In this document: one piece after another, positions 12,627 to 22,294 of the stretch | Position numbering within the stretch: the stretch's first letter is position 1 | How the letters are laid out: each line of letters opens with the position of its first letter | From: Candidatus Muproteobacteria bacterium | GTDB lineage: Bacteria > Pseudomonadota > Gammaproteobacteria > Acidiferrobacterales > SPGG2 | DNA length: 40,170 nt | NCBI GenBank assembly: GCA_003251795.1 | Contig: QKEI01000119.1 | Span: forward strand, 1-40,170 | Direction: 5' to 3' | Position numbers and translations under genes: made by a program | The notes under the pieces: generated by a model | Seen by the model: the letters and a program-made list of their open reading frames with translations, nothing else | Told to the model about the DNA's origin: nothing | Databases searched by the model: none

Positions 12627-12836
12627 CGGCAAATCGAGCGTTTTCTAGCGATAGACGGCACCAGGCTCGGCCAAATCCCATGGCAAGCGTGTCAGAATAG
12701 GACTATACTGCGTTGTGTCGGAGATCGTCGCCCGTTCCTTTACAGCCCCCGAGTCCCCCGTCATTTCCTTCAGTGCCTGGGCTTGTGCTTCGGAACAAGC
12801 GTTGAACTCGTAAACTTAACTACGGAGTCTGACTTG

Positions 12837-14015
12837 ATGCTGGATGGACTAGTACAAATGCCCGTTTGGGGTTATGTGGTAACAACGCTGCTGCTGACGC
12901 ACGTCACGATCGCCGCAGTCACTATTTTTCTGCACCGCCACCAAGCCCACCGGGCGTTGGATCTGCATCCGATAGTGAGTCATTTTTTTCGTCTGTGGCT
13001 GTGGCTCACTACAGGCATGCGCACCAATGAGTGGGTGGCAGTGCACCGCAAGCATCATGCACGGTGCGAAACCGACGAAGACCCGCACAGTCCGCAGATT
13101 GTCGGGATTAATATGGTCTTATGGCTGGGTGTTCTGCTCTATCGCCGAGAAGCTGCCAAAGCCGACACCCTGGAAAAGTACAGCAAGGGCACGCCGAATG
13201 ACTGGCTTGAACGCAATGTCTATAACCCCTATTGCTTCGTCGGCGTCTTTACGATGTTGGCTATTGATTTAGTGCTGTTCGGTCTTGCCGGTATTGGCAT
13301 CTGGGCCGTACAGATGTTGTGGATCCCATTCTGGGCCGCCGGTGTCATCAACGGCATCGGTCACTACTGGGGCTACCGCAACTACGAGTGCGCCGATGCT
13401 TCTACCAACATCGTTCCGTGGGGAATCGTCATCGGTGGTGAGGAAATGCACAACAATCACCACACCTACCCGAGCTCTGCCAAGTTCTCGTCGAAGTGGT
13501 GGGAGTTCGATATTGGCTGGGTGTATATACGCCTGATGAGCGCGCTGGGGTTGGCGCGGGTGAAGAAGGTGCCGCCAATGCCGCAGTTCGTGCCGATCAA
13601 GCCGATTGTGGATATGGATACCCTGCGTGCGGTATTAGTGAACCGATTCCGGGTGATGTCGCACTACTGTAAGGATGTTGTCATGCCCGTGCTCGTTGAG
13701 GAGAAGCGCAAGCGTAAGCAATCAGCGCGCCAACTGTTCAAGCATGCACGCCGTCTACTCGTGCGCCACGAGTCGCTGCTCGACCAAGAATCGCAGCACA
13801 AGCTCGAGACGCTTCTCAGCACCAGCCAGCAGTTGAGGATCGTCTACGTTTACAAGCAACGGCTTCAGGAAATCTGGAAGCGGCGCTCAGCGATAGAACA
13901 GGAAACCCTGTTGCACGCCTTGCGCGAGTGGTGCAGGCATGCAGAAAGCGCTGGCGTTGCCGCGTTGCAGGAGTTTGCTCGCGGCCTGCGCGGTTATACG
14001 CTAAACCCCGCCTAG
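12837..14015 (+). CDS. membrane fatty-acid/acyl-CoA desaturase (DesA-like)
   Basis: This protein of about 392 residues is an integral-membrane di-iron desaturase. The three histidine boxes are visible: HRHQAH near residue 36, HRKHH near 73, and the HNNHH box within EEMHNNHHTYP near 205. Hydrophobic stretches flank boxes 1 and 2 and occur at about 130-180. It probably introduces a cis double bond into membrane acyl chains. The start at 12837 is preferred over 12783 because GGAG lies 9 bases upstream. After the desaturase core (to about 260) there is a helical, charged C-terminal region of about 130 residues. It is usual in gammaproteobacterial DesA-like proteins but not part of the catalytic fold. 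Confidence 0.9.
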   Translation: MLDGLVQMPVWGYVVTTLLLTHVTIAAVTIFLHRHQAHRALDLHPIVSHFFRLWLWLTTGMRTNEWVAVHRKHHARCETDEDPHSPQIVGINMVLWLGVLLYRREAAKADTLEKYSKGTPNDWLERNVYNPYCFVGVFTMLAIDLVLFGLAGIGIWAVQMLWIPFWAAGVINGIGHYWGYRNYECADASTNIVPWGIVIGGEEMHNNHHTYPSSAKFSSKWWEFDIGWVYIRLMSALGLARVKKVPPMPQFVPIKPIVDMDTLRAVLVNRFRVMSHYCKDVVMPVLVEEKRKRKQSARQLFKHARRLLVRHESLLDQESQHKLETLLSTSQQLRIVYVYKQRLQEIWKRRSAIEQETLLHALREWCRHAESAGVAALQEFARGLRGYTLNPA

Positions 14016-15824: not shown

Positions 15825-16592
15825 ATGAAAAAGATACGCGCGTTTTTTCTGGAGCTGTACCGGGGCTCGAAACGGCGGGACGTGCGAGCACGCGCGGTGC
15901 TGGTGATGTTCGACCTGACAACGATCATCTATTTCGTCGTCACGACTTTTCTCCCTCTCTATCGCTGGATCATTATCGTTGATCTCGTCATCGGCGCAGT
16001 TTTTCTCATTGATTTACTAGCACGGATGCTCATAGAACGCGACCGAGTCAATTTCCTGTTGCAACCGTGGACCATCGTAGACATTCTGGTTATCGTCTCG
16101 CTGCTGATTCCGGCGTTGACCGGAAGTTTCTTGTTCTTGCGCGTACTGCGTGCCGTTCGGTTGATACGTTCCTACTATGTGGTGAAGGAGCTGCGACGCT
16201 ATTCGCGGTTCTTTGCGCGTAATGAAGAGGTCATCTTTAGCGCACTCAATCTCGTGGTGTTCGTTTTCGTGGTGGCAGCGGCAGTTTACGTACTGCAATC
16301 GCCGGTCAATCCCTCAATAGAGAATTACGTCGATGCGCTGTACTTCACCATCACCACGCTGACCACGACCGGATTCGGCGATATCACGCTGACCGGCACC
16401 ATGGGGCGGTTACTGTCGGTGCTGATCATGATCGTCGGGGTGACACTTTTTCTGCGCTTGGTACAGACCATCGTGCGTCCCGGGAAGGTGCGCCACGAGT
16501 GCCCCGACTGCGGGCTTTCACGTCATGACCCGGATGCTGTCCACTGCAAGCATTGCGGTCATCTATTGCACATCGAAACCGAAGGCGCCTGA
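15825..16592 (+). CDS. voltage-gated-type potassium channel with C-terminal zinc ribbon
   Basis: This 255-residue protein shows a six-helix ion-channel layout. Hydrophobic segments lie at about 24-46, 48-69, 83-98 and 137-157, and the final helix at 194-215. An S4-like segment with regularly spaced arginines (RVLRAVRLIR, 106-115) precedes the pore, whose filter reads TTTGFGD at 180-186. This is a variant of TVGYGD. After the last helix, C226-PDC229 and C241-KHC244 form a zinc ribbon. An in-frame reading upstream to 15612 exists, but its 71 extra residues lack channel features, so the ATG at 15825 with GAG upstream is chosen. It probably conducts K+ across the inner membrane; gating is unknown. 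Confidence 0.85.
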   Translation: MKKIRAFFLELYRGSKRRDVRARAVLVMFDLTTIIYFVVTTFLPLYRWIIIVDLVIGAVFLIDLLARMLIERDRVNFLLQPWTIVDILVIVSLLIPALTGSFLFLRVLRAVRLIRSYYVVKELRRYSRFFARNEEVIFSALNLVVFVFVVAAAVYVLQSPVNPSIENYVDALYFTITTLTTTGFGDITLTGTMGRLLSVLIMIVGVTLFLRLVQTIVRPGKVRHECPDCGLSRHDPDAVHCKHCGHLLHIETEGA

Positions 16593-16623
16593 AGAATGCA
16601 TCGCTGTTACAAGAGGCGGTAGA

Positions 16624-17511
16624 ATGTCCGGCGTGATCGAGTTACCGCGTCTTTTTCCTGCCACCAGTCCGCCAATCCATCCGGTACCGGAATACGCGGT
16701 GACCGGCGAACGCGCTGCGCGCTACGCCGACATGAAACAGGTGCTGCAGGTGCCGTGGATGGGAGTGGTGACCATGGCTTACGCCCACTACCCGACGTTT
16801 TTTGGAGAACTTTGGCGCGGGCTCAAACCGCTTTGTGCCAGCGCTGCGTTTGTACAGGCCACGCAGACGTTGCGCGCTCTGGCGGAATCGGGTGCACCAA
16901 CACTTGCGCCTTACTCGATCGTGCCGCAGCTGAGGACCGCCGGTTATGGCGAACGCGAGATTGCGGATATCCGGGCGATGATCGAGATATTCAGCCATGG
17001 TAATCCGCTGTATCTACTCATCGCCACGGTGGTGCGATTGATACTTGAGGACGGTGAGCTGAGCGCACAGTCCGAAGCGCCACCGTTCGACGGACGTCAC
17101 GCCCCGTCTGTGCAGGTACCATTTGTGCTGATGGAAGCGCATCATGCCAATGGTCCCACACGCGCGCTCTATGAGGATGTGAAGGCGACGCTTAATTTGC
17201 CGTTCGTCAATACCGATTATCGTGCACTTGCGCGCTGGCCAAGCTACTTCGTTATGGCGTGGGCTGAGCTAAAAGAGATCGTCGGTATGCCGGTATACGA
17301 AACCCAATGTGAAGCGGTCCACACACGCGCAGTGACCATCGCTCAAGAGCTGCCAAACCCCGGTGCTCTGAGTGGCGCCACGCTAAAGGAGGCCGCCGCG
17401 ACGGATGCGCCACTCGCGGAAGTGCTCGAGGTGAGCCGGCTGTTTCAATACTTGCTTCCGGGACTAATGGTAAACGTGGCCGTGTTTCGCCAGCAATTGG
17501 CTGAGATCTGA
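16624..17511 (+). CDS. DehI-family 2-haloacid dehalogenase homologue
   Basis: This 295-residue protein matches the DehI group of haloacid dehalogenases, which attack 2-haloacids with an activated water. The internal duplication typical of DehI is visible: ARYADMKQVLQVPWMG...YPTFFGELWRGLKP and ALYEDVKATLNLPFVN...WPSYFVMAWAELKE. The catalytic Asp is expected in the NTDYRALARWP segment, D198 here. AGGCGG lies about 5 bases before the chosen ATG; an in-frame start at 16525 would overlap the channel gene and is rejected. No haloacid permease or regulator is nearby. Many chromosomal homologues have no proven dehalogenase activity, so the substrate remains open. Confidence 0.8.
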   Translation: MSGVIELPRLFPATSPPIHPVPEYAVTGERAARYADMKQVLQVPWMGVVTMAYAHYPTFFGELWRGLKPLCASAAFVQATQTLRALAESGAPTLAPYSIVPQLRTAGYGEREIADIRAMIEIFSHGNPLYLLIATVVRLILEDGELSAQSEAPPFDGRHAPSVQVPFVLMEAHHANGPTRALYEDVKATLNLPFVNTDYRALARWPSYFVMAWAELKEIVGMPVYETQCEAVHTRAVTIAQELPNPGALSGATLKEAAATDAPLAEVLEVSRLFQYLLPGLMVNVAVFRQQLAEI

Positions 17512-18205: not shown

Positions 18206-19372
18206 CTAACCTTCACCAGTCCGTGCTTTACCTTCGGCACCAGTACCAAGAATTTCCTCAGTATGCTCTCCGAGCAGCGGTGCGCGCGTATGTGACGGCT
18301 GGCAGTCACTGAGCTTGATCGGGTTACCGATAACACGGAACGTTCCGTCCGGCGTGTCGATGAGCTCGATCATGGCACGCGCTTGTGTTAAATCGCTCTC
18401 CAAAGCCCGGTCCAAGGTTTCGATTCCGGCCACTACGATCCCCAAGCGACTCAGCCGTTGTACCCAACGCACCGTCGTATCGGTTTGCAACAATGCCGCG
18501 ACCTCGGTAATCACCAGGTCACGGTTGGCGTTACGTGCTTCCATCGTGGTAAAGCGCGGATCTGACAACCAATGGGGGCGTTCCACCTCCTCGGCAAATC
18601 GTTGCCAGAAGCCGTCGTGGCTGATGAAAAGCGCAAGATGACCGTCGCGCGAGGCAAAAATCTGTGCCGGAACGAAATAAGGGTGGGCGCCGTTGCGGTA
18701 GCGCTGTGGTTGTTCGCCGGCGTTCAGGTAAGCCGCCGCCAGATAGTTGAGCTGGGACAACATGACGTCATAAAGCGATATGTCGACTTGCCCGCCTTTG
18801 CCTTCGATGATCTTTGCCAACAGGCCGACGGCACCCATGATCCCGGACGAGTTATCAACCAGCGAGTATCCCGGTTTGGTGGGTGGTGCATCCGGGTCAC
18901 CGGTCAGCGCCATGATGCCGGTCAGGGCCTGGATCACGTAGTCGTATGCTGGGCGATCGGCGTACGGTCCGGTAAGGCCGTAACCCGTGAGCGCGACGCA
19001 AACCAGGCGTTCGTTGGCCGCGCGCAACTGCTCGTAAGTGAGGCCGAGTCTTTGTATGACGGCTGGCCGCATGTTGCTGATGAGTGCGTGTGCGCCAGTG
19101 GCCAGCCGGTGTAACGCCTCTTGACCTTTCGGCGTAGCCAGATCGAGGCACACGCTGCGCTTGTTCCGGTTGAGGCTCGTGAAATAGACGTTATGCGGCC
19201 CGACGTAGTTGGGACCGACACGGCGAGCGATGTCACCCTGCGGCGGTTCGATCTTGATGACGTCAGCGCCGAGATCCGCCAGCAACATGCCGCAATACGG
19301 CCCAGCGAGCATGTGCGTAACTTCGAGCACGCGAATATTGGCGAGCGGACCGCGGCGGGCATTCTCGCTCAT
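18206..19372 (-). CDS. family III CoA-transferase (CaiB/BaiF)
   Basis: This 388-residue enzyme has the CaiB/BaiF layout: VLEVTHMLAGPYCGMLLADLGADVIKIE at the N-terminus, NRNKRSVCLDL, and the loop GYSLVDNSSG, in which D173 is the expected acyl-carrying aspartate. Family members move CoA between carboxylates (formate/oxalate, carnitine derivatives, benzylsuccinate, citramalate). The gene is last of a four-gene unit; its ATG overlaps the stop of the B12-binding mutase subunit by 4 bases. This position suggests that it activates the mutase substrate or releases the product. The exact acid cannot be read from the sequence. Confidence 0.9.
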   Translation of the reverse strand: MSENARRGPLANIRVLEVTHMLAGPYCGMLLADLGADVIKIEPPQGDIARRVGPNYVGPHNVYFTSLNRNKRSVCLDLATPKGQEALHRLATGAHALISNMRPAVIQRLGLTYEQLRAANERLVCVALTGYGLTGPYADRPAYDYVIQALTGIMALTGDPDAPPTKPGYSLVDNSSGIMGAVGLLAKIIEGKGGQVDISLYDVMLSQLNYLAAAYLNAGEQPQRYRNGAHPYFVPAQIFASRDGHLALFISHDGFWQRFAEEVERPHWLSDPRFTTMEARNANRDLVITEVAALLQTDTTVRWVQRLSRLGIVVAGIETLDRALESDLTQARAMIELIDTPDGTFRVIGNPIKLSDCQPSHTRAPLLGEHTEEILGTGAEGKARTGEG

Positions 19373-19767
19373 GAGCCCAGCTCCCGCTCAATCGTCGCGA
19401 GCACGTCTGCGACACGCATATCGGCCGTAAAGACCTGGCGCACACCCGAGCGCAGCAGGGCCTGCCGGTCCTCGTGCGGTATAGTCCCGCCCACGAACAG
19501 CGGCTTATCGTCGATACCGAGCTCGCGCAAATGTTTAATCGTCTCCTCGACCAGCGCCATGTGACTGCCAGAAAGAATGCTGAGGCCGATAGCATCCACA
19601 TCCTCTTGCATAGCCACGCGTGCGATGTAATCCGGGCTTTTGCGTAATCCTGTGTAGATCACCTCAGCGCCAGCGTCGCGCAGCGCGAGCGCCATGACCT
19701 TGGCACCGACATCGTGACCGTCCAGGCCCGGCTTGGCGATCAACAGGCGTTTTCCCCGCAGAGTCAT
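19369..19767 (-). CDS. B12-binding small subunit of acyl-CoA mutase
   Basis: This 132-residue protein is a stand-alone cobalamin-binding domain of the methylmalonyl-CoA mutase C-terminal type. The base-off/His-on motif DxHxxG is D16-G-H18-DVG, followed by SILSGSH and the GGTIPHED loop, all standard. It pairs with the large subunit encoded immediately upstream, as in isobutyryl-CoA and 2-hydroxyisobutyryl-CoA mutases. The ATG at 19767 is 7 bases after the large-subunit stop; a GTG at 19803 would overlap that gene and add a non-conserved N-terminus. No ribosome site is evident, so translation is probably coupled. Confidence 0.9.
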   Translation of the reverse strand: MTLRGKRLLIAKPGLDGHDVGAKVMALALRDAGAEVIYTGLRKSPDYIARVAMQEDVDAIGLSILSGSHMALVEETIKHLRELGIDDKPLFVGGTIPHEDRQALLRSGVRQVFTADMRVADVLATIERELGS

Positions 19768-19774
19768 GGCGGCG

Positions 19775-21415
19775 TTACAAGCGTATCGGCTCCTGAAACT
19801 CACCCCACTGGCGTTTCAGCGCTGATACCATCTCGCCTACTGTGGCGTAGGCATGACAGCAGTCGATCAGATATGGCATGAGGTTTTCATTGTCGCTAGC
19901 GGCTGCCTCCTCGAGCCGCGCGAGGGCGTGCTTGACGCCGGCGGCGTCGCGACGCGCCTTTAGCTCTTCGTACTTTTCGATGACGCGCTTAACCGATTGT
20001 GGATTGAGACGAAAAGCCTCGCCGGCCTGGTCTTGTTCGTCGATGTTGCGGAAATAATTAACACCCACCACTACTTGTTCACCCGTATCGCTAAGTTGCT
20101 TGCGGTTGCGGGCACGCTCGGCCGTGCGCATCTGCAGGTAGCCATCCTCGATGGCTTTGATGGCGCCGCCATACTCTTCGATCTGCTTGATGACAGCGAG
20201 CATTTCCTGCTCCATGCGCTCGGTCAGCCACTCGACGTAATAGCTGCCGCCGAGCGGGTCCACAGTCTTGGCGATACCGCTTTCATAAGCGATGAGTTGT
20301 TGCGTACGCAGCGCCAGCTCGGCGCTGCTTTCCGTCGGTATCTGGAACGCTTCATCATAGGCGCAGGTAAAGATCGACTGTGCGCCGCCCAGCACGGCGG
20401 CCATGGTTTCGACGCCGACGCGCACGATGTTGTTCTGTGGTTGTGCGGCGGTCAGCGAGGAACCGCCGCAGACAACCCCGAAGCGAAAACGCAACGCGCC
20501 TACGTCCTGCACACCGTAACGTTCCTTCAACAAACGCGCCCACAGTCGCCGACCCGCGCGAAACTTGCAGACTTCCTCGAAGAAATCCATATGCACGTAA
20601 AAGAAAAAGCTCAGGCGTTTGGCAAACTGGTTGATGTCACCGCCACGCTTGAGCAGTTCGTCCACATAGGCGAGCCCGTTCGCTAGCGTGTAGCCCATCT
20701 CTTCGACGGCGGTGACGCCGGCATCGCGGAAATGAGCGCCGGCGATGCTGATGGGGTTAAACCGGGGCGTTTGCTGATTGGAGAACAAGATCGTGTCGGC
20801 GATCAGGCGCATCGATGGTCGCACCGGAAAGATCCAGGTGCCGCGGGCGACGTATTCTTTCAGGATGTCATTCTGGATGGTGCCGGTGAGCTTTTCGCGG
20901 GCAACACCGTGTTTGTCCGCTACCGCCAGGTACATCGCATAGATGATGGCAGCGGTGCCGTTTATCGTGAACGAGGTAGAGATACGCTCCAGGTCAATGC
21001 CACGGAAGAGGATCTCCGCCTCCGCCAGGTTGGACAATGACACGCCGACCTTTCCCACTTCCGGACGCGCCATGGCATCGACCGGGTCGTAACCGCACTG
21101 TGTCGGCAGATCGAGCGCCACCGAGAGCCCCGTTTGTCCGCGCTCGAGCAGAAAACGATAGCGTTCATTAGTCTCTTCCGCCGAGCCGAAGCCCGAGTAT
21201 TGACGAAAGGTCCACAGACGCCGCCTATAACCATCGGCGAAGATGCCGCGGGTAAACGGATACTCGCCCGGTAATCCGGGGTCGTGGGCCCTTACCATGT
21301 CCGCGGTAACAATCGCCGGAATCTCGATTCCCGACGCTGTGCGCGGCGCCGGTATCGCGGGTATCTCGTCCTCCATGGTCGTCTTAGGTTGCTCGTTGGC
21401 TTGAGATTTGCTCAT
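19775..21415 (-). CDS. methylmalonyl-CoA mutase-family large subunit, divergent active site
   Basis: This 546-residue protein is the TIM-barrel subunit of a B12-dependent acyl-CoA mutase. Using P. shermanii mutase numbering (offset 16, then 15), retained residues include R87 (R71 here), Y89 (Y73), S114 (S98), Q197 (Q181), R207 (R191), H244 (H228) and E370 (E355). Tyr89 and Arg207 mark mutases acting on a substrate with a second carboxylate. Changed residues include the YPTM segment (FADG at 59-62), Y243 (A227), H328 (G313), Q330 (V315) and N366 (C351). The pocket should therefore be larger and different. The start overlaps the crotonase stop by ATGA and follows a GAGAGGGGG ribosome site. It is probably a mutase, but calling it methylmalonyl-CoA mutase is unsafe. 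Confidence 0.88.
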   Translation of the reverse strand: MSKSQANEQPKTTMEDEIPAIPAPRTASGIEIPAIVTADMVRAHDPGLPGEYPFTRGIFADGYRRRLWTFRQYSGFGSAEETNERYRFLLERGQTGLSVALDLPTQCGYDPVDAMARPEVGKVGVSLSNLAEAEILFRGIDLERISTSFTINGTAAIIYAMYLAVADKHGVAREKLTGTIQNDILKEYVARGTWIFPVRPSMRLIADTILFSNQQTPRFNPISIAGAHFRDAGVTAVEEMGYTLANGLAYVDELLKRGGDINQFAKRLSFFFYVHMDFFEEVCKFRAGRRLWARLLKERYGVQDVGALRFRFGVVCGGSSLTAAQPQNNIVRVGVETMAAVLGGAQSIFTCAYDEAFQIPTESSAELALRTQQLIAYESGIAKTVDPLGGSYYVEWLTERMEQEMLAVIKQIEEYGGAIKAIEDGYLQMRTAERARNRKQLSDTGEQVVVGVNYFRNIDEQDQAGEAFRLNPQSVKRVIEKYEELKARRDAAGVKHALARLEEAAASDNENLMPYLIDCCHAYATVGEMVSALKRQWGEFQEPIRL

Positions 21416-22191
21416 GACTTACCCCCTCTCGCCAATAGCTTTTCAGCGGCCATCCAGTGGTCCGGGTGGATCCAAGTATCGGAGAACAAGCGCGTCTCGA
21501 GCGCAAGCATCGCCTCGCGCGATTGGCCCTCGCGTGCGGCCAGGGCGAGGGCCTTGTAGGCCCGTGTGACCTGAGGTACTTGTTGACGCAGTGGCTCGAG
21601 GAAGCGTTGCACCGCGTCGTCCAGCGTCTCACCGCTGTGCGCGACCGTGTCGGCCAAGCCGAGCGAGAGTGCCGTCTCGGCATCAACTAGCTCGCTACGC
21701 GCGAGCAGGCGCAGCCCAAGCGCCGGTCCCAGCAGGCGCAGCAAATCGACACCGCCACCCCAGGCAGTAGCAATATTAAGGCGTCCGTGAATAAAACCGA
21801 TGGCGGCATGTATTGCCAGCACACGGAAATCACACGCAAGCGCAAGCTCGGCACCGCCACCGAGTGCATCGCCGTTGAGCGCTGCGACCACTGGCACCGG
21901 GAAACGACGCACGGCCTCGAGCGCCGCTTTACCTTCTTCGGCCATCGCGGTCGCTTCATCCGAGCGGCGCACAGCGCTGAGGTCTCTTAGGTCACCGCCG
22001 GCGGCAAAGCACCGGTCACCGGCACCTCGTAGCACCGCCACTAACACAGCAGCATCGTCCGCACGCGCTTGGAAGAGCTCGCGCAGCTCCGCCAGTACGG
22101 CACGACTCAGGGCGTTGCGTTTTTCCGCCCGGTTGATGGTAACGTGCAACACACCGGCTTCAGTTTCCACCCGCAGGTTAGTACCAACCAT
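21412..22191 (-). CDS. crotonase-family protein, probable acyl-CoA decarboxylase rather than hydratase
   Basis: This 259-residue crotonase retains both oxyanion-hole segments (CFAAGGDL near 61-68 and GDALGGGAEL near 107-116). The two glutamates of enoyl-CoA hydratase are absent: the first position is H135 in FIHGRLN, and the second aligns with R161. The following ATAWGG (W144) and the His recall ethylmalonyl/methylmalonyl-CoA decarboxylases (ECHDC1 type) as I remember that family. A decarboxylase role next to a mutase fits, but is inferred. The ATG at 22191 has AGGAAGG at 5 bases; the GTG 6 bases upstream would sit on this site. First gene of the four-gene operon. A weak promoter (TTAGCC, 17 bases, TACGAT) may precede it. 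Confidence 0.85.
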   Translation of the reverse strand: MVGTNLRVETEAGVLHVTINRAEKRNALSRAVLAELRELFQARADDAAVLVAVLRGAGDRCFAAGGDLRDLSAVRRSDEATAMAEEGKAALEAVRRFPVPVVAALNGDALGGGAELALACDFRVLAIHAAIGFIHGRLNIATAWGGGVDLLRLLGPALGLRLLARSELVDAETALSLGLADTVAHSGETLDDAVQRFLEPLRQQVPQVTRAYKALALAAREGQSREAMLALETRLFSDTWIHPDHWMAAEKLLARGGKS

Positions 22192-22294
22192 CCGCACCTT
22201 CCTGATATGGCAAAATCGTATGATGCGCCCGCTACGGGGCTAACGCTACTGCTATCGCACACGCACAATTCCCCTTGGGAACTCGGTGCCGCAC

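What the first reader, a model, noticed from the sequence alone, without database searches (positions are those of the whole stretch)
18206..22191. Four-gene operon: decarboxylase-like crotonase, split B12 mutase and family III CoA-transferase
The genes overlap or nearly touch (ATGA at 21412-21415, 7-base gap at 19768-19774, ATGA at 19369-19372). They combine carbon-skeleton mutase, probable decarboxylase and CoA-transferase. The E. coli Sbm (scp) operon combines the same three activities to turn succinate into propionate, but there the transferase is of a different family. Here no MeaB-type chaperone, epimerase or propionyl-CoA carboxylase is visible. The set could form a catalytic cycle that decarboxylates a substituted dicarboxylic acid with CoA recycling. 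This is inference from gene content.
Basis: partly seen in the sequence, partly recalled or inferred. Interest (0 to 1): 0.75.

Follow-up and report, generated by a model that had tools for sequence, protein, structure and literature searches.

The report
B12-dependent dicarboxylic acid decarboxylation operon
Four adjacent genes, kept together in the same order in many proteobacteria, encode a B12-dependent mutase, a decarboxylase-like enzyme and a CoA-transferase that are predicted to break down a branched dicarboxylic acid by rearranging its carbon skeleton and then likely removing CO2.

Summary
In detail: an operon of a crotonase, a B12 mutase large subunit, a separate B12-binding subunit and a family III CoA-transferase. 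In the 80 closest genome loci the crotonase stands beside the mutase in 75, the B12 subunit in 79, the transferase in 59, and a MeaB-type GTPase, missing here, in 60; an IclR regulator and carboxylate transporters are frequent. The crotonase is unlikely to be a hydratase: the second catalytic Glu is Q or H in 80 of 80 rows, and it groups with animal ethylmalonyl-CoA decarboxylase ECHDC1 (100/99), not with E. coli YgfG. The mutase is a clade of its own: it keeps the Tyr/Arg pair expected for a carboxylated substrate but has an invariant, differently built pocket, unlike methylmalonyl-, 2-hydroxyisobutyryl- or isobutyryl-CoA mutase. Best reading: CoA activation, radical rearrangement and decarboxylation of a substituted succinate to acyl-CoA + CO2; it works like the E. 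coli Sbm pathway but is assembled from other families. The reactions are inferred and the substrate is unknown; methylsuccinate or a larger 2-substituted succinate is the leading guess. Ten searches of an open library listed no description of it.

The parts
21412..22191 (-). Crotonase-fold protein of the ECHDC1 (ethylmalonyl-CoA decarboxylase) clade; predicted alkylmalonyl-CoA decarboxylase. E117 kept, H137 in place of the hydratase Glu, W146, W242, H247 (numbered from the GTG at 22197)
   Evidence: ECH_1 8.7e-38; tree 100/100 and 100/99 with ECHDC1; residues
19775..21415 (-). Large subunit of a coenzyme B12-dependent acyl-CoA mutase, own clade; Y73, Q181, R191, H228 kept, A227/G313/V315/S319/F349/C351 altered
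   Evidence: MM_CoA_mutase 2.8e-194; 87 family rows; tree 100/100
19369..19767 (-). Small B12-binding subunit of the mutase, GLDGHDVG motif
   Evidence: B12-binding 4.7e-20; nearest solved chains are B12-dependent mutase chains; motif in 84 of 84
18206..19372 (-). Family III CoA-transferase, catalytic Asp at D173; predicted to put CoA on the dicarboxylic acid
   Evidence: CoA_transf_3 5.9e-114; D173 aligns with E. coli Frc D169, Asp in 64 of 64
22197..22202 (-). Ribosome-binding-like GGAAGG upstream of the crotonase ATG
   Evidence: read; its role is inference

Best explanation
The operon encodes a family III CoA-transferase, a two-subunit coenzyme B12-dependent acyl-CoA mutase of a clade of its own and a crotonase-fold protein of the ECHDC1 clade, which together likely convert a substituted succinate into an acyl-CoA plus CO2. 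Predicted course: the transferase would put CoA on the dicarboxylic acid (donor probably succinyl-CoA, or the product acyl-CoA); the mutase would shift the thioester group to the neighbouring carbon by a radical mechanism, turning an alkylsuccinyl-CoA into an alkylmalonyl-CoA; the ECHDC1-like enzyme would then decarboxylate it, making the sequence irreversible; the acyl-CoA would enter beta-oxidation. In most of the relatives fetched a MeaB-type GTPase (predicted B12 loader) follows, and an IclR regulator, a carboxylate transporter or a B12 adenosyltransferase often stands near, so it is read as an inducible uptake-and-breakdown cassette. Shown: genes, order, conservation, clades, residues. 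Inferred: every reaction and the substrate. Methylsuccinate (to ethylmalonyl-CoA, then butyryl-CoA) is the simplest guess; larger 2-substituted succinates fit the altered pocket as well.
For: Conserved operon: of the 80 genome loci fetched (best 80 of 436), crotonase 75, B12 subunit 79, transferase 59, GTPase 60; in the 62 with at least 900 bases upstream and 2800 downstream: 60, 62, 46, 51. Divergence of the partners tracks that of the mutase (r 0.64-0.85; 0 of 500 permutations reach it in each of four tests; shared species history also contributes). The one GTPase scanned passes the MeaB cut-off TIGR00750; P-loop in 63 of 63. Four named plasmid copies read crotonase - mutase - B12 subunit - transferase - GTPase, with an IclR-type regulator upstream in three, a TRAP, TTT or TAXI transporter next in three and an adenosyltransferase next in one. 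Crotonase: E117 in 80 of 80, second hydratase Glu replaced by Q in 71 and H in 9 of 80; 12 of 12 chosen ECHDC1-clade rows also have H (9) or Q (3) there and share both Trp; one side of a branch with ECHDC1, 100/99, also after adding the two nearest solved hydratases (14 family rows, 12 ECHDC1-clade rows, 12 others); 91 of 91 family ORFs score higher with an ECHDC1 profile (12 rows) than with a profile of four other crotonases, against 1 of 18 other crotonase ORFs, itself a fragment of a family gene. Mutase: Y73 and R191 (MCM Y89, R207) in 87 of 87 rows, a pair that 2-hydroxyisobutyryl-CoA mutase lacks; A227, G313, V315, F349 in 87 of 87, all different from MCM and HCM.
Against: No biochemistry. 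Overall similarity does not decide for ECHDC1: the family profile gives at best 159.5 bits to the listed ECHDC1-type proteins and 163.7 to a solved hydratase; only tree and residues decide. Of the 12 ECHDC1-clade rows 4 bear the name ethylmalonyl-CoA decarboxylase, 7 none, and 1 (P0234) is named enoyl-CoA hydratase by its source. The crotonase C-terminus has WxHxDHW where ECHDC1 has WGGPA, so the substrate need not be the same. The transferase was not seen in 21 of 80 loci, and neither transferase nor downstream GTPase in 8 (two of these, L040 and L080, end within 1.3 kb of the mutase), so activation by this transferase is not essential everywhere. Roles of MCM residues are partly recalled. 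Fe(II) oxygenases, SDR and aldehyde dehydrogenases near some copies are unexplained.
Confidence: 0.55

Rival explanations
1. A Sbm pathway from other parts: the mutase acts on succinyl-CoA/methylmalonyl-CoA, the crotonase decarboxylates methylmalonyl-CoA, and the transferase moves CoA from propionyl-CoA to succinate.
For: Tyr/Arg pair of MCM kept in 87 of 87; ECHDC1 also decarboxylates methylmalonyl-CoA (abstract opening of PMC8473548); same three activities as E. coli scpA, scpB, scpC.
Against: The mutase is outside the MCM clade and differs at eight or more compared positions from the MCM rows; dedicated transporters and an IclR regulator would be odd for succinate, which cells already burn (inference).
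Confidence: 0.2
2. Metabolite repair: the mutase and decarboxylase clear wrongly made alkylmalonyl- or alkylsuccinyl-CoA esters, as ECHDC1 does in animals.
For: ECHDC1 clade; 7 of 80 loci show crotonase, mutase and B12 subunit without transferase or downstream GTPase, in MAGs titled Alphaproteobacteria, Rhodospirillaceae or Proteobacteria; in several of the five listed the neighbours look like housekeeping genes (unscanned).
Against: Regulator (44 of 80) and transporters (27 of 80) nearby point to an inducible catabolic use; the family is patchy: 3 of 369 genomes sampled in the class, this one included, score over 1000 bits.
Confidence: 0.1
3. Breakdown of an aromatic- or ring-substituted succinate, as in the iaa (indoleacetate) pathway, with decarboxylation in place of oxidative decarboxylation.
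For: The iaa pathway uses a CoA-transferase and a mutase, IaaGH, on phenylsuccinyl-CoA (PMC8360864, passages); the IaaG-like mutases L099/L124 also carry Cys at the N366 position and altered H328/Q330/H364; here A227 differs in addition.
Against: The IaaG-like rows fall in another clade. I saw no hydantoinase among the recurrent neighbour clusters printed, but did not search for one.
Confidence: 0.1

Closest known systems
E. coli Sbm/Scp operon (scpA-argK-scpB-scpC)
   Same: B12 mutase, MeaB-type GTPase (in 60 of 80 relatives), crotonase-fold decarboxylase and CoA-transferase in one operon
   Different: Mutase of another clade and in two subunits; crotonase 23% identical to YgfG over the aligned 182 positions and in another clade; transferase of family III, not the ScpC family
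ECHDC1, animal ethylmalonyl-CoA decarboxylase
   Same: Same crotonase clade, same Glu, H/Q and two Trp
   Different: C-terminal WxHxDHW in place of WGGPA; in an operon with a mutase rather than a lone repair enzyme
iaa pathway (IaaL, IaaGH, IaaF) of Aromatoleum
   Same: CoA-transferase plus mutase acting on a substituted succinyl-CoA, then a malonyl-CoA intermediate that loses CO2 (passages)
   Different: IaaF is an acyl-CoA dehydrogenase; here a crotonase; IaaG-like mutases in a different clade
2-hydroxyisobutyryl-CoA mutase HcmAB (4r3u)
   Same: Nearest solved structure by sequence for the large subunit (482.8 bits); same split architecture
   Different: Ile/Asp/Gln specificity residues (recalled as such) are Tyr/Ala/Arg here
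Itaconate/methylsuccinate cluster (ict, ich, ccl, mcd, msi)
   Same: CoA-transferase-initiated breakdown of a C5 branched dicarboxylic acid with succinyl-CoA as donor (PMC12290011, passages)
   Different: Goes by dehydrogenation, hydration and a lyase; the word mutase does not occur in its main text

Membership tests
Sbm/Scp propionate operon | Mutase of the methylmalonyl-CoA mutase clade | tested here: not met
   Own clade 100/100, apart from ScpA and human MCM (12 family rows)
Sbm/Scp propionate operon | YgfG-type methylmalonyl-CoA decarboxylase | tested here: not met
   Groups with ECHDC1, not YgfG
Sbm/Scp propionate operon | ScpC-type CoA-transferase | tested here: not met
   CoA_transf_3
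Sbm/Scp propionate operon | MeaB/ArgK GTPase in the operon | tested here: not met
   Absent in the window, present in 60 of 80 relatives
ECHDC1 clade | One clade with named ECHDC1 against hydratases and YgfG | tested here: met
   100/99, 26 against 12 rows
ECHDC1 clade | GGGAE Glu, H/Q in place of the second hydratase Glu, WGG Trp, C-terminal Trp | tested here: met
ECHDC1 clade | C-terminal WGGPA | tested here: not met
   WxHxDHW instead
ECHDC1 clade | Ethylmalonyl-CoA decarboxylase activity | not testable with these tools
   needs purified protein
Methylmalonyl-CoA mutase | Y89, R207, H244 (P. shermanii numbering) | tested here: met
   87 of 87; R207's role recalled, Y89 and H244 named as active-site residues in a passage of PMC3205055
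Methylmalonyl-CoA mutase | Y243, H328, Q330, H364, N366 | tested here: not met
   A, G, V, F, C/A in the family
2-hydroxyisobutyryl-CoA mutase | I90, D117, Q208 | tested here: not met
   Y, A, R
IaaGH phenylsuccinyl-CoA mutase | Same clade as IaaG | tested here: not met
   IaaG-like L099/L124 elsewhere in the tree; their naming rests on the gene set of L151, not on the Aromatoleum sequence, which I did not have
Family III CoA-transferase | PF02515 and catalytic Asp | tested here: met
   5.9e-114; D173, 64 of 64
AdoCbl mutase small subunit | DxHxxG cobalt-ligand motif | tested here: met
   GLDGHDVG in the window; GLDGHxxG in 84 of 84

The most novel reading that the evidence does not exclude
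An undescribed B12-dependent catabolic pathway of proteobacteria: a new clade of acyl-CoA mutase turns a substituted succinyl-CoA into an alkylmalonyl-CoA, and a bacterial relative of the animal proofreading enzyme ECHDC1 drives it forward by decarboxylation, with its own regulator, importer, CoA-transferase and B12 loader.
Probability: 0.5. Interest if true: 0.75.

Novelty: new variant of a known kind. Interest (0 to 1): 0.62.

Why it matters
It would add a reaction class to the small list of known B12 acyl-CoA mutase pathways and show a bacterial catabolic use of the ECHDC1 decarboxylase fold, which is known from animals as a repair enzyme. It would also correct annotations: the annotated copies are labelled methylmalonyl-CoA mutase family and enoyl-CoA hydratase/isomerase family, so metabolic models may give their hosts steps they do not have. 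The invariant pocket signature makes the substrate question directly testable. A mutase that accepts larger dicarboxyl-CoA esters could also be useful for making alkylmalonyl-CoA building blocks.

Tried and rejected
Tried without result: ten literature searches (some aimed at the cassette, some at ECHDC1, mutase classes or MCM residues); none of the listed titles and abstract openings describes it. Passages of PMC11599936 and PMC6759758 were looked at and not used; two papers on the HCM mutase are not held. The AlphaFold model of the mutase from a 14-row alignment has mean pLDDT 58.3 and was not used. Overall bit scores as a test of decarboxylase against hydratase were set aside as undecided. 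Rejected: enoyl-CoA hydratase (second Glu in 0 of 80 rows); 2-hydroxyisobutyryl- or isobutyryl-CoA mutase (Gln at the Arg position); a split housekeeping MCM (other clade, pocket). L104 was taken as ethylmalonyl-CoA mutase by recalled sequence features only. Some copies have Fe(II)/2-oxoglutarate-type oxygenase, LLM monooxygenase, aldehyde dehydrogenase or SDR neighbours; no substrate could be read from them.

Counts: the 80 loci are the best 80 of 436 found. L006 and L159 repeat L012 and are not in the 80. Genes were counted by similarity (at least 40 bits) and position, from ORF lists, so strongly diverged ones may be missed. The 87 mutase rows are non-identical rows over 800 bits and include a few from genomes fetched twice. 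One search used the window and 79 crotonase rows of at least 200 bits; weaker ones were dropped. The 91 ORFs include repeats of the same gene in overlapping loci; the 18 others also include repeats, and one of them was in the four-row profile. Trees used 12 mutase and 14 crotonase rows of the family.
Full report
1. The observation. The window holds four minus-strand genes in the order crotonase (21412-22191), mutase large subunit (19775-21415), B12-binding subunit (19369-19767) and CoA-transferase (18206-19372). Pfam assigns ECH_1, MM_CoA_mutase, B12-binding and CoA_transf_3 with E-values from 4.7e-20 to 2.8e-194. Upstream stands an aldo/keto reductase, downstream a convergent FKBP-type isomerase; I did not test whether these recur with the operon.

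2. Do the genes travel together? A scan of GTDB representative genomes with a 14-row alignment of the mutase gave 436 relatives, of which the best 80 were fetched: Halomonas and Billgrantia, Bradyrhizobium, Achromobacter, Roseovarius, Cycloclasticus, Pararhizobium and many MAGs. Of the 80, crotonase, B12 subunit, transferase and a MeaB-type GTPase are all present in 46; all but the transferase in 11; all but the GTPase in 10; only crotonase and B12 subunit in 7; other sets in 6, of which four (L071, L073, L079, L080) are cut near a contig end. Hence crotonase 75, B12 subunit 79, transferase 59, GTPase 60 of 80. Among 62 loci with room on both sides the numbers are 60, 62, 46 and 51. An IclR regulator lies nearby in 44 of 80, and a transporter like one of the few queried ones in 27 of 80. 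Four annotated plasmid copies (Marinobacter, Diaphorobacter, Sulfitobacter, Paraburkholderia) show the same order, with a TTT, TAXI or TRAP transporter gene after the GTPase in three and an adenosyltransferase in Marinobacter. The one GTPase scanned, L072, passes TIGR00750 (245.5 against 240.75 bits); the P-loop is in 63 of 63. Sequence distances of each partner follow those of the mutase (r 0.71 crotonase, 0.64 B12 subunit, 0.70 transferase, 0.85 GTPase; 0 of 500 permutations each), as expected for joint inheritance, though shared species history adds to this. In a sample of the class, 3 of 369 genomes, this one included, carry a member over 1000 bits; the next score is 606, so the close family is patchy.

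3. This genome. MeaB is present elsewhere, beside an HCM-type mutase on contig C4, and inside an IcmF on C61. No canonical MCM was found among the mutase matches, and no epimerase reaches its cut-off; the assembly is 94.6% complete, so absences are not certain. The GTPase that is missing in the window, and in the relative L012, may be supplied from elsewhere in the genome (inference).

4. The crotonase. Against E. coli YgfG it has 23% identity over 182 positions. In 80 rows the first catalytic Glu (E117) is invariant, while the position of the second hydratase Glu is Q in 71 and H in 9, never E. A recalled piece of ECHDC1 found 133 proteins (120 listed), the best named ethylmalonyl-CoA decarboxylase. 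Twelve of these were used as the ECHDC1 clade: 4 named so, 7 unnamed, 1 named enoyl-CoA hydratase by its source. In a tree with PaaF, PaaG, CaiD, MenB, YgfG and five further crotonases, the family and these rows are one side of a branch (100/100), and again after adding the two nearest solved hydratases (100/99). They share Glu, H/Q and two Trp; a conserved Glu in the motif GGGAEFTT of ECHDC1 is also mentioned in PMC8473548 (passage). Family ORFs score higher with an ECHDC1 profile than with a profile of four other crotonases in 91 of 91 cases, other crotonases in 1 of 18, which is a fragment of a family gene. Against this, whole-profile scores do not separate ECHDC1 (159.5 bits at best) from hydratases (163.7), and the C-terminal motif is WxHxDHW instead of WGGPA. 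I read it as an alkylmalonyl-CoA decarboxylase with its own specificity.

5. The mutase. Twelve family rows form a clade with 100/100 support and a long stem, apart from MCM, HCM, the IaaG-like pair and others (several long branches, so deeper joins are unsure). All 87 non-identical family rows keep Y73, Q181, R191 and H228, equivalents of MCM Y89, Q197, R207 and H244. R207 is recalled as the anchor of the substrate carboxylate; HCM has Gln there. All 87 differ from human MCM and from HCM at A225, A227, H275, G313, V315, G317 and F349, and residue 351 is Cys (73) or Ala (14) where they have Asn. That these line the pocket rests on recalled MCM structures. IaaG-like mutases, whose Aromatoleum relative acts on a phenylsuccinyl-CoA ester (PMC8360864, passages), also lost the His, Gln, His and Asn of this region. 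This speaks for a substituted dicarboxyl-CoA ester rather than methylmalonyl-CoA itself.

6. The transferase. The best NCBIfam models are succinate-glutarate and succinyl-CoA:mesaconate CoA-transferase, both far below cut-off (261.9 of 750, 252.2 of 700), and the nearest solved chains are a formyl-CoA transferase and YfdE. D173 aligns with E. coli Frc D169 and is Asp in 64 of 64. A dicarboxylic acid as acceptor fits.

7. Mechanism. Most likely: import, CoA transfer, B12 radical rearrangement of alkylsuccinyl-CoA to alkylmalonyl-CoA, decarboxylation to acyl-CoA. The reactions are inferred. Rivals are Sbm-like use of succinate, metabolite repair, and aryl-succinate breakdown. Where the transferase is missing, other possible activating genes stand near: in L058 (Hyphomicrobiales) an acetyl-CoA hydrolase/transferase family protein, an aldehyde dehydrogenase and an SDR, and in Bradyrhizobium L035 a like-looking set with a branched-chain-type ABC permease; in L022 an alkyl sulfatase and an AMP-ligase-like gene (unscanned). 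This suggests that the core is crotonase plus mutase and that the way of activation varies.

8. Novelty. Ten searches of the open library listed no description. Methylsuccinate breakdown is known by another route without a mutase (PMC12290011, passages). The cassette works like Sbm but fails its membership tests; it is a new variant of a known kind.

Noticed in passing
L150 (G313:C78), L122, L123: Another uncharacterised cluster: two mutase large subunits, three crotonases, a family III-like CoA-transferase, a B12 subunit and a MeaB-like GTPase by similarity; at least one of its mutases also has Ala at the MCM Y243 position.
   Followed up: partly
G000:C196:7039-8535 (L002, L157); L010, L011, L102, L108: A further mutase class with Leu at the Y89 and Asn at the R207 position and HTD in place of HTN; in the window's own genome it lies beside what look like AMP-ligase, acyl-CoA dehydrogenase and TetR genes (unscanned). 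Substrate unknown.
   Followed up: no
L151 (G061:C7:22000-36000): An iaa-like cluster in a genome of the same class: family III CoA-transferase, mutase, B12 subunit, acyl-CoA dehydrogenase, hydantoinases A and B.
   Followed up: partly
L012 / G002:C220; L029, L050, L073: A contig titled Nitrospira sp. carries this operon at 80% identity; a contig of the same length and gene matches lies in a genome of the window's own family (G002), so the title is probably wrong. Three MAG contigs titled Klebsiella pneumoniae (L029, L050, L073) are probably mistitled too (not tested).
   Followed up: partly
window 16525-17511 (+): Protein with a partial match to DehI (PF10778), 5.7e-13 over residues 77-171.
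   Followed up: no
window 12783-14015 (+): DesA-family fatty acid desaturase whose C-terminal tail matches ISL3-type transposases (NCBIfam NF049918, NF049919).
   Followed up: no
L015, L023, L027, L028, L033, L039, L042, L043, L048, L051, L065, L083, L088, L090, L091: A recurrent neighbour in 15 of 82 loci, DIOX_N/2OG-FeII oxygenase in the two members scanned; upstream of the operon in the alphaproteobacterial loci listed and downstream in Achromobacter L088 and L090.
   Followed up: partly
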